From Prevotella sp. (GTDB taxonomy: Bacteria > Bacteroidota > Bacteroidia > Bacteroidales > Bacteroidaceae), in assembly GCA_017478085.1 (NCBI GenBank), contig JAFVEE010000074.1, positions 1-58,853 on the forward strand: a stretch of 58,853 nucleotides of DNA, read 5' to 3'. The notes under the pieces are model-generated. The model was not told where the DNA came from. It saw only the letters and a list, made by a program, of their open reading frames with translations, and did not search any database. The first letter of the stretch is position 1; the number at the start of each line of letters is the position of its first letter. The translations under genes and the position numbers were made by a program. Below are positions 4,312 through 58,738 of the stretch, one piece after another.

Positions 4312-4430
4312 GAGAATAGACTTGTGCGGCAAGGGGATTAGCGGCCTTGCCACCAGTCCCCTGGCCTAACGTTTAAAAGTTTCCGCCGGGTAGTCGTCCA
4401 TAATTTGTTACTAATTGGTTTGAATTTGCG

Positions 4431-4509: not shown

Positions 4510-4572
4510 ACGGGGTGTGGGACTGATTGGGACGAGGTGGGACTGATTGGGATGGATTGGGACGGGGTGGGA
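4510..4572. repeat. 10-bp G-tract array, block A
   Basis: About six units at exact 10-bp spacing, each beginning GGGA and ending in TT or GT before the next GGGA (GGGACTGATT, GGGACGAGGT, GGGATGGATT, GGGACGGGGT). The block lies directly after the stop codon of the four-helix-bundle gene and has the same plus-strand orientation as block B on the other side of it. Confidence 0.9.
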
Positions 4573-4576
4573 AATA

Positions 4577-5140
4577 CTAAAAGTGGCGATGGTTGCGGCG
4601 GGCTTGGGTCATAGCCTCGCTGATGCCGCCCTGGGTGATGAAGCGCTGCTCCAGCATTTTGATGTAGTGCTCAATCAGGTAGATAGACTGGTGAATCAGG
4701 GTGAGTGCCAGGTTGGCCAGCTCTTCGTCGTCCATTTTCTGCCAGGTGGCAATGTGCTGCTCCGGGTTCGTGAGACTGCGGCAGAACTGCTGTAGCCTCG
4801 AGGTGCGTGGGTGATGCTGGCCCCAGATGGGTATGCCCCTTGCCCGTAGGTAGTCCTCGTAGTCGGCTTGCAGCTCGCGCAGGCTGCCCTTTGAGCAGTT
4901 GGTGAGCGACAGTTCCATCTTGCTTGATGTCAGCCCATCGGCAGCCCCCTCGATGATGTTCTGTTTGCCCGACCGTGCAGACTGTAGCATCTGGTCGCGT
5001 GTGCGGTCTTTGACGTCCAGGTAGCGGTTGATGAACTGGAAGGTGATGTCGTAGATAGCCACCAGCTTGGGGTAGAAGAGCAGCTTCTTCGGGTCGGTTT
5101 CGTTGGGGAGAAAGCCGTTGGGGGATGAGGGGACGGGCAT
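4577..5140 (-). CDS. Four-helix-bundle protein (S23/Avd-like 'suffix' family)
   Basis: A 187-residue helical protein. Diagnostic segments are FQFINRYLDVKDRTRDQMLQSARS, KQNIIEGAADG, SKMELSLTNCSKGSLRELQADYEDYLR and a long terminal helix (LALTLIHQSIYLIEHYIKMLEQRF). They match the four-helix-bundle family related to the 23S rRNA intervening-sequence protein and to Avd proteins of diversity-generating retroelements, in the variant called the suffix domain. Related proteins bind nucleic acid or assemble as pentamers; the function here is unknown. The frame extends to 5398, but that part is only translated decamer repeat, so ATG 5140 is chosen. Arrays of G-tract decamers flank it on both sides. No reverse transcriptase is present. 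Confidence 0.8.
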   Translation of the reverse strand: MPVPSSPNGFLPNETDPKKLLFYPKLVAIYDITFQFINRYLDVKDRTRDQMLQSARSGKQNIIEGAADGLTSSKMELSLTNCSKGSLRELQADYEDYLRARGIPIWGQHHPRTSRLQQFCRSLTNPEQHIATWQKMDDEELANLALTLIHQSIYLIEHYIKMLEQRFITQGGISEAMTQARRNHRHF

Positions 5141-5150
5141 GGGGTTGGGG

Positions 5151-5330
5151 GATTTTGGGGGATTGGTTGGGATTTGTTGGGATTGATTGGGACGGAGTGG
5201 GAGTTGTTGGGACTTACTGGGACGGGGTGGGAGTTGTTGGGACGGGGTGGGACTTGCTGGGATTGGGTGGGACTTGCTGGGACTTGCTGGGATGGGGTGG
5301 GACGAGGTGGGAGCGGTTGGGAGCTCAATT
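5151..5330. repeat. 10-bp G-tract array, block B
   Basis: Roughly 17 units of form GGGANNNNNT follow each other at an unbroken 10-bp period on the plus strand. Positions 1-4 (GGGA) and 10 (T) are nearly constant; positions 5-9 vary among a few words such as CGGGG, CTTGC, GTTGT and TTGAT. Runs of three or four G every 10 bp give G-quadruplex potential. The array lies just 5' of the four-helix-bundle gene. Confidence 0.95.
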
Positions 5331-5333
5331 CGT

Positions 5334-5439
5334 CCCAATCCATCCCAATTCGTCCCAGTTAGTCCCAACAACTCCCAGTCAGTCCCAATCAGTCCCAAAT
5401 AGTCCCAATCAGTCCCAGTCAGTCCTAATCACTCCCACT
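5334..5439. repeat. 10-bp G-tract array, block C (inverted)
   Basis: The decamer continues without loss of the 10-bp spacing but in reverse orientation (units now end in TCCCA on the plus strand), with GAGCTC at the turning point near 5330. About ten units run to within 6 bp of the pepD stop codon. Blocks B and C could pair with each other as a long imperfect hairpin. Confidence 0.93.
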
Positions 5440-7002: not shown

Positions 7003-7428
7003 TTACAAAAGTCGTATCTTTTCAATTTCTGCTGTATCGGGATGCCTGTAGTACCATTCTGAGAAAAGGCTCTCGGCTCCGAAGTTGATAATCATTCCGT
7101 AGGGTATGTGCGTCAGATTCATATAGTTCCACAATTGTCGGCGATGCTGGGTGTCGACGTATGAGATGGCTTTCAGCTCAATGATGATGTTACTATTGAC
7201 GACCAGGTCCATTTTGTAATACTGGTCCAACTGCACATTGTCCCAGAAGATAGGCAACATTTTTTGGCGCTCCACCTGATAGCCGTCCTGCTCTAAAAGA
7301 TATTTCAAAGCGGCTTCATAGGCCGATTCAAGCAAACCTGGACGATACTTGCTGTGAACCTTCATTGCCACACCTGTTATGGTGCGGAAGAAATCCCATC
7401 TTCTGTTATATTCTTCAATTACAGTCAT
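7003..7428 (-). CDS. GxxExxY protein (PD-(D/E)XK_3 nuclease-like)
   Basis: A 141-residue protein with the family signature GLLESAY (G-x-x-E-x-x-Y) near residue 30 and a PD-(D/E)XK-type core: D in YKMDLVV followed by IIIELKAI. The family is widespread in Bacteroidetes and has no proven function, although the fold predicts nuclease activity. The frame is open to 7536, but ATG 7428 (MTVIEEYNRRWDF) gives the standard family N-terminus; the extension overlaps the end of the next gene. It lies downstream of and in the same direction as the LPG-synthase-TM gene. Confidence 0.85.
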   Translation of the reverse strand: MTVIEEYNRRWDFFRTITGVAMKVHSKYRPGLLESAYEAALKYLLEQDGYQVERQKMLPIFWDNVQLDQYYKMDLVVNSNIIIELKAISYVDTQHRRQLWNYMNLTHIPYGMIINFGAESLFSEWYYRHPDTAEIEKIRLL

Positions 7429-7483
7429 CTTTATTTTGAAAAATTTTGAAATATATTTTGAGAAATTTTGAGCGAAGCGACCC

Positions 7484-10246: not shown

Positions 10247-10300
10247 ACAAAATTTTCGCCAGAAAATTTTCAAAATGCGACGAGGATTTCGCTGATCGCT

Positions 10301-10403
10301 AACGGAGGCTCCGTTAATCGCTAACGGAGGCTCCATTGACGCTCAACGGAGGCTCCGTTGATGGTCAACGAGGGCCCCGTTGAGCCTTAACGGAGGCTCC
10401 GTT
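10301..10403. repeat. 22-bp-period palindrome array, locus 1 (5 copies)
   Basis: Five copies of a 15-bp palindrome related to AACGGAGGCTCCGTT start at 10301, 10323, 10345, 10367 and 10389, exactly 22 bp apart, separated by 7-nt spacers (AATCGCT, GACGCTC, GATGGTC, GAGCCTT). Where a copy departs from consensus the change is sometimes compensated in the opposite arm (AACGAGGGCCCCGTT). The array ends 44 bp before the ksgA promoter. Confidence 0.95.
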
Positions 10404-41740: not shown

Positions 41741-41843
41741 AACGGAGGCTCCGTTATGTTAGAACGAGGGCTCCGTTGTGTTCCAATGGAGGCTCCGTTG
41801 CGTTCTAATGGAGCCTCCGTTAGAAGGCAACGGAGCCCTCGTT
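41741..41843. repeat. 22-bp-period palindrome array, locus 2 (5 copies)
   Basis: Copies of a 15-bp palindrome begin at 41741, 41763, 41785, 41807 and 41829, exactly 22 bp apart: AACGGAGGCTCCGTT, AACGAGGGCTCCGTT, AATGGAGGCTCCGTT, AATGGAGCCTCCGTT, AACGGAGCCCTCGTT. The 7-nt spacers differ. It has the same unit, period and copy number as locus 1 and sits just past the cysK stop codon, between two minus-strand units. Confidence 0.95.
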
Positions 41844-42806: not shown

Positions 42807-42832
42807 TGCTGTTGTGTTTTTTTGTAGGACAT

Positions 42833-42877
42833 ATAGGTCTTATAGGGCCTATAGGTCTTATGGGGCCTATAGGCCTT
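42833..42877. repeat. 9-bp tandem array, locus 1 (metY-cysK spacer)
   Basis: Five 9-bp units on the plus strand (ATAGGTCTT, ATAGGGCCT, ATAGGTCTT, ATGGGGCCT, ATAGGCCTT). Read in the direction of transcription it begins AAGGCCTATAGGCCC after the metY stop, the same words that open the array at 51564. Confidence 0.9.
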
Positions 42878-42885
42878 ATTTGTGA

Positions 42886-50484: not shown

Positions 50485-51561
50485 ATGAACAGAAGATTAG
50501 GAATATTTGCAGTATCATTTATCATTTGTCATTTATCATTTAGCCCCGCAGGGGCGCAGAAGCTCGTCGTTCAGCAGCAGACCATCAACTGCGGCAAGAC
50601 GGGCTACGAGGTGCCCGCCACCGCTACCTTCGAGCTGAGGAACAAAGGACTGAAACGCCTGGTCATCAAGGAAGTGCACCCTGACTGCGGCTGCACCCAG
50701 GTACAGGTGTCGAAAAAGGAGCTGGGGGCTAACGACAAGGCCACCATCAAGCTTACCTACGATGCCCGTCAGCTGGGCCACTACGTGAAGCAGGCCGCCG
50801 TCTATACCAATGCCAGCGACCAGCCCGTCTACCTCACTATGAAGGGTGTAGTGCTGGAGGAGCTGAAGGACTACAGTGGCGTTTATCCCTACGCCATGGG
50901 CGAGCTGCTGGCCGACAAGAACGTGCTGGAGTTCGACGACGTGAACAAGGGCGACCACCCCATACAGGAGATTCACATCCTGAACAACAGCGAACGCCAG
51001 ATGACGCCCAACATTCAGCATCTGCCATCCTATCTCTCGGCCATCGTCACCCCTGAGAAGCTGGCTCCCGGCCATGCAGGCAAGGTGTCGGTCATGCTCA
51101 ACTCTGAGAACATCAACGACTACGGGCTCACCCAGTCGGCGGTCTATCTGGCCAGCAACCTGGGCGACAAGGTAAGCCCCGACAACGAGCTGCCCATCTC
51201 GGTGGTGCTGTTGCCCGACCTAAAGAACTACGAGGGCAATCTGAAGCAGTATGCCGCCCGCATGGAACTGTCTGACAGCGTACTCACCCTGGGCATGATC
51301 GACGGCAAGAACCACAAGAGCGGCACCATCCTCATCACCAACCGTGGCCGTCAGCCACTCAAGATCTCGTCGCTACAGATGTTTACAGCGGGCCTCACCC
51401 TGACCCTCGGCAAGCGCGAGCTGCAACCCGGCGAGCAAACCAAGCTGAAGATTGAGGCCGACCGCGACAAGCTGCTGAAAGCCCGCTCGAAGCCCCGTGT
51501 GCTGATGATCACCAACGACCCCGACCACACCAAAGTAGTAATCACCATTCAAGTAAAATAA
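50485..51561 (+). CDS. Exported DUF1573 protein
   Basis: 358 residues with a signal peptide ending PAGAQ. Two DUF1573 (ASPM-SPD-2-Hydin-like Ig) modules occur: residues about 27-125 (TATFELRNKGLKRLVIKEVHPDCGCTQVQ, the diagnostic DCGCT) and a second from about 245 (GTILITNRGRQPLKISSLQM). A middle module resembles the first. Function unknown. The signal-peptide region contains a 7-bp TCATTTA-like repeat. It starts 3 bp after the macroglobulin stop codon. Confidence 0.88.
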   Translation: MNRRLGIFAVSFIICHLSFSPAGAQKLVVQQQTINCGKTGYEVPATATFELRNKGLKRLVIKEVHPDCGCTQVQVSKKELGANDKATIKLTYDARQLGHYVKQAAVYTNASDQPVYLTMKGVVLEELKDYSGVYPYAMGELLADKNVLEFDDVNKGDHPIQEIHILNNSERQMTPNIQHLPSYLSAIVTPEKLAPGHAGKVSVMLNSENINDYGLTQSAVYLASNLGDKVSPDNELPISVVLLPDLKNYEGNLKQYAARMELSDSVLTLGMIDGKNHKSGTILITNRGRQPLKISSLQMFTAGLTLTLGKRELQPGEQTKLKIEADRDKLLKARSKPRVLMITNDPDHTKVVITIQVK

Positions 51562-51563
51562 GG

Positions 51564-51635
51564 CCTATAGGCCCTATAAGTCCTATAAGACCCATTAGCC
51601 CTATAAGACCCATAAGACCCATAAGACCCATACCC
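51564..51635. repeat. 9-bp tandem array, locus 2 (DUF1573-meaB spacer)
   Basis: Eight 9-bp units, starting right after the stop codon: CCTATAGGC, CCTATAAGT, CCTATAAGA, CCCATTAGC, CCTATAAGA, CCCATAAGA x2, CCCATACCC. It fills nearly the whole spacer before meaB and has the same orientation relative to transcription as the metY-cysK array. Confidence 0.93.
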
Positions 51636-58423: not shown

Positions 58424-58711
58424 TCATTCCGCTAACAGTTCTTTTAGTTTCACAATCTGTTGATGCAACTCATAGCGCTTCCGTGTCTGTTCCTCAGCTC
58501 GGCAGCGCTTTTCTAATGCCTCTATCTGGCAAAGCAGCTTTTCGTGCTGTTCGCGATAAGTGTGAAAGGCATAGATGGAGAAGCAGGAGGCCGCTATCGA
58601 GAGTCGGCTTCCTGGTTGCAGCTGCTGCATCAAGTCATCGTACAGTAACTTATTTGGTTCCAAGCGTTGGAACTGTTTGTTCCAAGCCTCCGTACTGTTT
58701 GTTCCAGGCAT
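58424..58711 (-). CDS. Small coiled-coil protein with repeat-derived N-terminus
   Basis: 95 residues from ATG 58711 (a TTG at 58729 is possible). The first about 20 residues (MPGTNSTEAWNKQFQRLEP) are translated from the 22-bp array; the rest is a short hydrophobic segment (RLSIAASCFSIYAF) followed by a charged coiled coil (EQHEKLLCQIEALEKRCRAEE). No known domain. Similar ORFs whose N-termini read through such repeats are common in Bacteroidales (from memory), so the translation start is uncertain. Confidence 0.5.
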   Translation of the reverse strand: MPGTNSTEAWNKQFQRLEPNKLLYDDLMQQLQPGSRLSIAASCFSIYAFHTYREQHEKLLCQIEALEKRCRAEEQTRKRYELHQQIVKLKELLAE

Positions 58712-58738
58712 TGGAACTGTTTGTTCCAAGCCTCCGTA
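58658..58738. repeat. 22-bp-period array, locus 3 (4 copies)
   Basis: Fifteen-bp elements start at 58658, 58680, 58702 and 58724 (TTCCAAGCGTTGGAA, TTCCAAGCCTCCGTA, TTCCAGGCATTGGAA, TTCCAAGCCTCCGTA) with a constant 7-nt spacer CTGTTTG. Element length, spacer length and period equal those of the arrays at 10301 and 41741, and the CCTCCGTA half resembles their CTCCGTT arm. Confidence 0.93.

What the first reader, a model, noticed from the sequence alone, without database searches (positions are those of the whole stretch)
4510..5439. Four-helix-bundle gene embedded in orientation-switching 10-bp G-tract arrays
More than 30 decamers GGGANNNNNT keep an exact 10-bp step in three blocks. Blocks A and B flank the gene in the same orientation; block C continues in phase but inverted, with GAGCTC at the switch. 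The step is about one DNA turn, so all G-tracts face one side of the helix, and G-quadruplexes or a B/C hairpin are possible. The variable five middle bases come from a small set of words, which suggests copying of units rather than drift. The enclosed protein belongs to the S23/Avd-like fold, whose relatives handle nucleic acid. Gene plus repeats may form one mobile or self-templated element.
Basis: partly seen in the sequence, partly recalled or inferred. Interest (0 to 1): 0.78.

Follow-up and report, generated by a model that had tools for sequence, protein, structure and literature searches.

The report
Four-helix gene bounded by matching repeats
A small bacterial gene of unknown function sits inside ladders of short DNA repeats; in related bacteria genes of this family often come with such ladders, and the repeat word tends to go with the gene's lineage rather than with its place in the genome, which suggests that gene and repeats form one travelling unit.

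Summary
In detail: 32 exact GGGAN5T decamers in three blocks; 26 stepped triplets against 0.00 expected. Read literally, the co-occurrence claim fails: this genome has decamer arrays at 10 further places without a TIGR04258 gene, and its second TIGR04258 gene has none. But that gene is flanked on both sides by another 10-bp unit. Over 62 TIGR04258 genes from 59 genomes, period-9/10 arrays occur in 52 of 100 adjoining gaps against 12 of 255 other gaps (p=4e-23). With arrays on both sides the period agrees in 21 of 22. The unit tends to follow the protein lineage, not the site, and matching solo arrays occur in the same genomes. Next to pepD the gene is absent from 29 of 30 loci of other genomes. 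Non-suffix relatives often lie between inverted 7/8-bp arrays (7 of 11). Best reading: an array-bounded four-helix-bundle element with its own repeat word. Recognition of the word by the protein, and mobility, are inferred, not shown.

The parts
4519..4578 (+). Block A: 6 GGGAN5T decamers after the stop of the four-helix gene; reads TCCC on the gene's sense strand
4577..5140 (-). Four-helix-bundle gene with suffix domain, 187 aa
   Evidence: TIGR04258 66 bits, TIGR02436 24.5 bits; ortholog in L151 76% identical; low-confidence helical model, mean pLDDT 64
5159..5318 (+). Block B: 16 decamers upstream of the gene, same orientation as block A
5321..5326 (.). GAGCTC at the orientation switch
   Evidence: sequence
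5327..5436 (-). Block C: 10 exact decamers in inverted orientation directly after the pepD stop; pairs with block B in the predicted RNA
   Evidence: fold -147.9 kcal/mol, z -13.2; inversion also present in L151, z -6.3

Best explanation
This is one member of a family of array-bounded four-helix-bundle elements in Prevotella-like bacteria. A TIGR04258 gene lies in an intergenic gap, often with an array of 9- or 10-bp units directly after its stop, just before its start, or both; the unit is usually the same on both sides and tends to be characteristic of the protein lineage. Related genes carry their unit into different neighbourhoods, and arrays of the same unit occur alone elsewhere in the genome. 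SHOWN by comparison: the association, the shared unit, clustering of unit with protein lineage, absence of the gene beside pepD in nearly all relatives examined, and solo arrays. INFERRED: the protein recognises its own unit, as RNA or DNA, and this ties unit to gene. INFERRED, weaker: the element is mobile and selfish, and solo arrays are left or seeded by it, much as REPs relate to RAYT genes. In this window block C is an inverted array that with B makes a long RNA hairpin between pepD and the gene, at a place where several relatives have a terminator-like hairpin.
For: Period-9/10 arrays in 52 of 100 gaps beside the gene against 12 of 255 other gaps of the same stretches, and more in each of four gap-length bins. 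Either flank scores 20 or more in 42 of 62 genes against 49 of 290 control genes, both in 16 against 6. Period equal in 21 of 22 two-sided loci, flanks aligning at mean 37.5 against 8.4 across loci. Direct match between the two flanks in 22 of 61 against 5 of 290. Unit labels need 15 changes on the protein tree against 30.6 shuffled, 0 of 200 as low. Protein pairs of 65% identity or more without shared flanking homologs share the unit in 29 of 58; under 50% identity in 4 of 594; two gaps with homologous neighbours on both sides hold different genes and different units, 0 of 2 sharing. TCCGGA arrays in 8 of 150 genomes, all 8 with TIGR04258; CCTAGG arrays in 12, 10 with it; 83 of 150 overall. 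Gene absent beside pepD in 29 of 30 loci of other genomes.
Against: 20 of 62 genes have no flank scoring 20. Some unit labels do not cluster on the tree (CTAGA9 and CTATAG9: 500 of 500 shuffles as low; ACTAGT9 84; CTAGG10 17), and labels were assigned by me. Half of the close pairs in different neighbourhoods do not share the unit by my score, e.g. L339/L347 at 82% identity. Two genomes with CCTAGG arrays have no TIGR04258 hit (G074, G119). This genome has 9-bp ATAAGNCC arrays on at least 11 contigs but no gene found with that unit (completeness 77%). No binding, transposition or excision was observed; pairs and loci are not independent.
Confidence: 0.6

Rival explanations
1. Post-transcriptional regulon: the four-helix protein is a resident regulator that binds its unit in mRNA; flanking arrays are autoregulatory and solo arrays are target sites in operons. 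Nothing needs to be mobile.
For: Arrays end a median 27 bases before the start and begin 4.5 bases after the stop. The 10 other decamer arrays of this genome all read TCCC on the sense strand, 8 of them between co-directional genes. MacGregor proposed translational regulation for TAACTGA repeats (PMC4679880, abstract and two sections read).
Against: The gene changes neighbourhood, is present in only 83 of 150 genomes and is absent from most orthologous pepD gaps. Two decamer arrays lie inside genes by my calls.
Confidence: 0.2
2. Neutral expansion: short repeats grow by slippage in permissive gaps, and the four-helix gene merely sits in permissive gaps.
For: Other gaps have arrays too, 39 of 255 at score 20, mostly of period 7 or 8. 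One gap upstream of a conserved gene has different units in different genomes.
Against: Gap length was matched; the period differs (9/10 against 7/8); the unit matches across the gene and clusters with protein lineage.
Confidence: 0.08
3. Target preference: the gene inserts into arrays that were there before, without owning the unit.
For: Solo arrays are common and would serve as targets.
Against: Related genes in unrelated neighbourhoods share the unit far more often than distant ones (29 of 58 against 4 of 594), and two shared gaps hold different genes with different units.
Confidence: 0.06
4. Structure element: the decamers act as G-quadruplex, Rho-loading or terminator sequence unrelated to the gene.
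For: GGGA at 10-bp steps leaves 7-base loops; sense strands are C-rich in 10 of 10 other decamer arrays; GGGNATC repeats form quadruplexes in vitro and lie between aligned ORFs (PMC4692102, abstract and three sections read).
Against: Other units of the same gene family (TCCGGANNN, CTATAGNNN, ATAAGNCCN, AATCAGA-type) lack GGG runs, and TGGGAG arrays have the opposite strand sense at their genes.
Confidence: 0.06

Closest known systems
23S rRNA intervening sequences (IVS) with an S23 ORF, e.g. of Coxiella burnetii (PMC4990558, abstract start and passages seen)
   Same: A four-helix-bundle gene as cargo of a small element; the ORF lies in the loop of a stem; tandem heptamers of varying number stand before the S23 start codon; called selfish in that paper. 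Non-suffix genes here lie between inverted arrays in 7 of 11 cases.
   Different: Not in rRNA here; long arrays of lineage-specific units on the gene's flanks; solo arrays elsewhere. RNase III excision not tested.
REP sequences and RAYT genes (recalled, no paper read)
   Same: A gene flanked by copies of a short repeat that is also scattered alone in the genome; repeat type tied to gene lineage.
   Different: The gene is a four-helix bundle, not a Y1 transposase; the repeats are tandem arrays of 9-10 bp, not single palindromes.
GGGNATC / GGGGA(C/T)T repeats of Xanthomonas and Nostoc (Rehm 2015, PMC4692102; abstract and sections 10, 13, 16 read)
   Same: Short G-rich tandem units, mostly intergenic, often between aligned ORFs, with inverted pairs close together (70 cases in Xcc).
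   Different: 7-bp units without a reported link to a gene family; here 10-bp units with a variable middle.
TAACTGA direct repeats (MacGregor 2015, PMC4679880; abstract and sections 10, 15 read)
   Same: Intergenic short tandem arrays near start codons, patchy between species, some overlapping stop codons.
   Different: One fixed heptamer; no linked four-helix gene reported in what I read.
Avd of diversity-generating retroelements (PMC10053308, passages seen)
   Same: PF05635-like four-helix bundle.
   Different: No retroelement is claimed here; reverse transcriptase was not searched for.

Membership tests
TIGR04258 four helix bundle suffix domain | Match over curated cut-off | tested here: met
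   66 bits, cut-off 40
TIGR02436 / PF05635 (S23 type) | Match over curated cut-off | tested here: inconclusive
   TIGR02436 24.5 bits against 24; PF05635 20.2 bits under 33.8. Fold search: 2rld (S23 family) second, E 0.15, probability 0.97; nothing at E 0.001 or less
23S rRNA intervening sequence | Lies inside a 23S rRNA gene | tested here: not met
   Gene lies between pepD-like and corA-like genes; no Rfam match in the window
23S rRNA intervening sequence | Gene in the loop of an inverted repeat | tested here: inconclusive
   Block C is inverted to A and B, but the predicted hairpin is C with B, upstream of the gene
23S rRNA intervening sequence | RNase III excision | not testable with these tools
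   needs RNA
REP/RAYT | Gene flanked by repeats also found alone in the genome | tested here: met
REP/RAYT | Y1 tyrosine transposase | tested here: not met
   the gene matches TIGR04258, TIGR02436 and weakly PF05635 only
Rehm G-rich repeats | 7-bp GGGNATC-type unit | tested here: not met
   10-bp step with variable N5
Rehm G-rich repeats | Quadruplex formation | not testable with these tools
   needs CD spectroscopy
Diversity-generating retroelement | Reverse transcriptase with template and variable repeats | not tested
   no search made

The most novel reading that the evidence does not exclude
Four-helix-bundle proteins of the S23/Avd kind are readers of short tandem words: each protein lineage specifies its own 7-10-base unit, and gene plus arrays form a mobile element that seeds solo arrays into gaps between genes and sometimes into coding sequence. 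Suffix proteins go with same-orientation 9/10-bp arrays, non-suffix ones with inverted 7/8-bp arrays. rRNA intervening sequences would then be a special case of a wider class, and many lineage-specific short repeats of these bacteria would be explained.
Probability: 0.35. Interest if true: 0.9.

Novelty: new variant of a known kind. Interest (0 to 1): 0.74.

Why it matters
The role of S23-type four-helix-bundle proteins is unknown although structures exist, and so is the cause of lineage-specific short intergenic repeats. A link in which protein lineage helps to predict the repeat word makes both questions testable: bind the protein to its own word, and ask whether solo arrays respond to the gene. 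It also connects intergenic repeats with rRNA intervening sequences, where heptamers before the S23 start codon are on record (PMC4990558).

Tried and rejected
First I concluded that the gene was incidental, because decamers and TIGR04258 did not co-occur. That was an error of unit: allowing any short-period array reversed it. A Rho-loading reading (C-rich sense strand, 10-nt steps) fitted the decamers but not the other units. Rfam found nothing in the window at gathering threshold. A profile search of solved structures found nothing. The protein was found in no phage record and in one plasmid record, a 568-kb Prevotella nigrescens replicon, where the array after the gene scores only 17 and there is none before it.

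Weak points. Genes were called by a home-made hexamer model. Unit labels for the tree were assigned by me; 42 of 63 rows are labelled. Of 65 HMM hits three were dropped (two halves of a broken gene in L350; L380, misparsed by my script), leaving 62 genes from 58 stretches plus two in the own genome. The 60 stretches are one per genome from the 83 genomes with a match. Of 13 non-suffix loci two gave no hit with my query and were dropped. Of the five control genes with a strong direct flank match, two are a duplicated small gene pair, not arrays; they stay in the counts. Cross-locus pairs scored 20 or more in 10 of 600 (suffix, direct) and 4 of 110 (non-suffix, inverted). Counts put by hand into (2 of 56; 4 of 52) leave out two genomes looked at later; my recount over 63 sampled genomes is 5 of 5 against 2 of 58 for TCCGGA and 5 of 8 against 5 of 55 for CCTAGG; the Fisher tests were not rerun. 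Hairpins in relatives of the pepD gap were seen by eye, not folded. The names murA, rimM, REP and RAYT are recalled.

Full report
What is there. The window holds 32 exact GGGAN5T decamers in blocks A (4519-4578), B (5159-5318) and C (5327-5436, inverted), around a four-helix-bundle suffix gene at 4577-5140 on the minus strand. Stepped triplets number 26 against 0.00 in shuffles. The neighbours, a pepD-like dipeptidase and a corA-like transporter gene, run in the same direction. The 42 distinct middle words are fewer than the 58.4 expected from independent columns, so units have been copied.

Decamers elsewhere. The same genome carries decamer arrays at 10 further places. By my gene lie between co-directional genes and 2 inside genes; all 10 have TCCC on the sense strand. 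One in-gene array fits an in-frame insertion: in seven other genomes the homolog aligns up to query residue 100-107 and again from 136, skipping the array-coded stretch. Two TIGR04258 genes were found in this genome (completeness 77%). Among 60 genomes searched, this one included, two have five-unit decamer arrays, this one and G023.

The turn. I therefore measured any periodic array, lag 6-12, around TIGR04258 genes: one stretch from each of 60 of the 83 genomes with a match, plus the own genome; 62 full-length genes from 59 genomes were kept. In 300-bp flanks the score reached 20 upstream in 30, downstream in 28, both in 16, either in 42 of 62; among 290 other genes of the same stretches, either in 49 and both in 6. 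With only the intergenic part counted, gaps of 60-700 bases, period-9/10 arrays occur in 52 of 100 gaps beside the gene and 12 of 255 other gaps (p=4e-23), and more often in each of four length bins. Other gaps do have arrays, 39 of 255, of which 26 have period 7 or 8. Arrays hug the gene: median 4.5 bases after the stop (34 arrays), 27 before the start (31 arrays). An earlier, cruder count gave 23 of 30 TIGR04258 loci against 7 of 29 loci of a control gene.

Same unit on both sides, unit tied to protein. In 22 loci with arrays on both sides (score 12 or more) the period agrees in 21, and the two sides align at a mean of 37.5 against 8.4 between loci. Direct similarity of the two flanks reaches 20 in 22 of 61 genes against 5 of 290 controls. 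Units include GTCCCANNNN, CCTAGGNNNN, TCCGGANNN, CTATAGNNN, ACTAGTNNN, TGGGAGNNC, ATAAGNCCN and AATCAGA-type. On the protein tree the unit label needs 15 changes against 30.6 for shuffled labels, 0 of 200 as low; AATCAGA, CCGGA, GGGAG and TCCCA labels each need one change, while CTAGA and CTATAG labels do not cluster. Among 47 loci with arrays, protein pairs at 65% identity or more that share no flanking homolog share the unit in 29 of 58 cases, at 50-65% in 25 of 407, below 50% in 4 of 594. Conversely, two gaps with homologous neighbours on both sides hold different four-helix genes and different units (0 of 2). These pairs are not independent, but the direction is consistent: the unit goes with the gene, not with the site.

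Solo arrays follow. Four-unit TCCGGANNN arrays occur in 8 of 150 genomes, all 8 with TIGR04258; CCTAGGNNNN in 12, of which 10 have it; of the 19 distinct genomes 17 carry TIGR04258, against 66 of the other 131 (p=0.001; the three calls show the same draw as far as handles are listed). All five sampled genomes whose own gene bears a CCGGA unit have such an array on another contig. One of these was read after the fact: G162 had solo TCCGGA arrays, and its second TIGR04258 gene, fetched later, has a CCGGA array after its stop. Within the same stretches, 12 period-9 arrays lie in other gaps; four rank 1 to 3 of 47 in likeness to the local gene's array (two in L349, one each in L338 and L395), two rank 5, five rank 13 or lower including both in the window, and one has no local array to compare.

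The insertion site. Of 31 pepD loci (the window's own, 29 from other genomes, and L151) only the window and L151, a rumen Prevotellaceae contig, have the four-helix gene beside pepD within the stretch held. In 19 of the 29 corA begins within 500 bases of the pepD stop; some of these gaps show, by eye, a terminator-like hairpin. L151 keeps the C/B inversion with other words and fewer units but has no block A. In several relatives the hairpin arms at this place are themselves short tandem repeats, so block C may have arisen from, or replaced, such a hairpin; this is inference.

Non-suffix relatives. Eleven TIGR02436 genes without the suffix, one from this genome, tend to be enclosed by inverted 7- or 8-bp arrays: inverted flank match in 7 of 11, against 3 of 290 controls and 4 of 110 cross-locus pairs. 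That resembles the S23 ORF of rRNA intervening sequences, which lies in the loop of a stem; the Coxiella paper also records tandem heptamers before the S23 start codon (PMC4990558, passages).

Reading. I describe this as an array-bounded four-helix-bundle element with its own repeat word. Association, unit sharing, lineage clustering, absence from relatives and solo arrays are shown. Recognition of the unit by the protein, and mobility by any mechanism, are inferred. In layout it works like REP-RAYT but fails that family's test, having no Y1 transposase; it resembles an IVS but is not in rRNA. The literature searches listed no paper whose title or abstract start reports such a link; the library lacks most subscription papers.

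Noticed in passing
window 4366-4401 (-): Short ORF (MDDYPAETFKR) just upstream of corA behind a TTTG promoter-like element; the start ATGGACGA(T/C)TA(T/C)CCGGCG is seen in 17 of the 19 relatives in which corA begins within 500 bases of pepD. Looks like a conserved leader peptide; no Rfam match.
   Followed up: no
window 42832-42879 and 51558-51632: 9-bp ATAAGNCCN arrays between co-directional genes, sense-oriented; the same unit lies on at least 11 contigs of this genome and in 3 of 40 genomes searched, yet no four-helix gene with this unit was found here.
   Followed up: partly
window 10293-10403, 41744-41821, 58657-58731: 22-bp-period intergenic arrays, the first two with a GGAGGCTCC core; 22-bp arrays with other cores also occur in G016 and G023.
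   Followed up: no
window 7003-7480 (-): A PDDEXK_3 gene with CAAAATT repeats before its start and AATTTTG repeats after its stop, i.e. inverted, by eye; another small gene that may be array-bounded. My flank score did not pick it up because it used the wrong start.
   Followed up: partly
L437, L438, L448, L451, L458, directly after pepD: Terminator-like hairpins whose two arms both look like tandem repeats of 7 or 9 bp, as if one arm had been copied from the other; seen by eye.
   Followed up: no
L018 4619-4734 and L196, L212, L194, L203, L205: The same gap upstream of a conserved gene (rimM by recall) has a 10-bp array here, 9-bp arrays of other units in other genomes and a 7-bp array in one.
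   Followed up: partly
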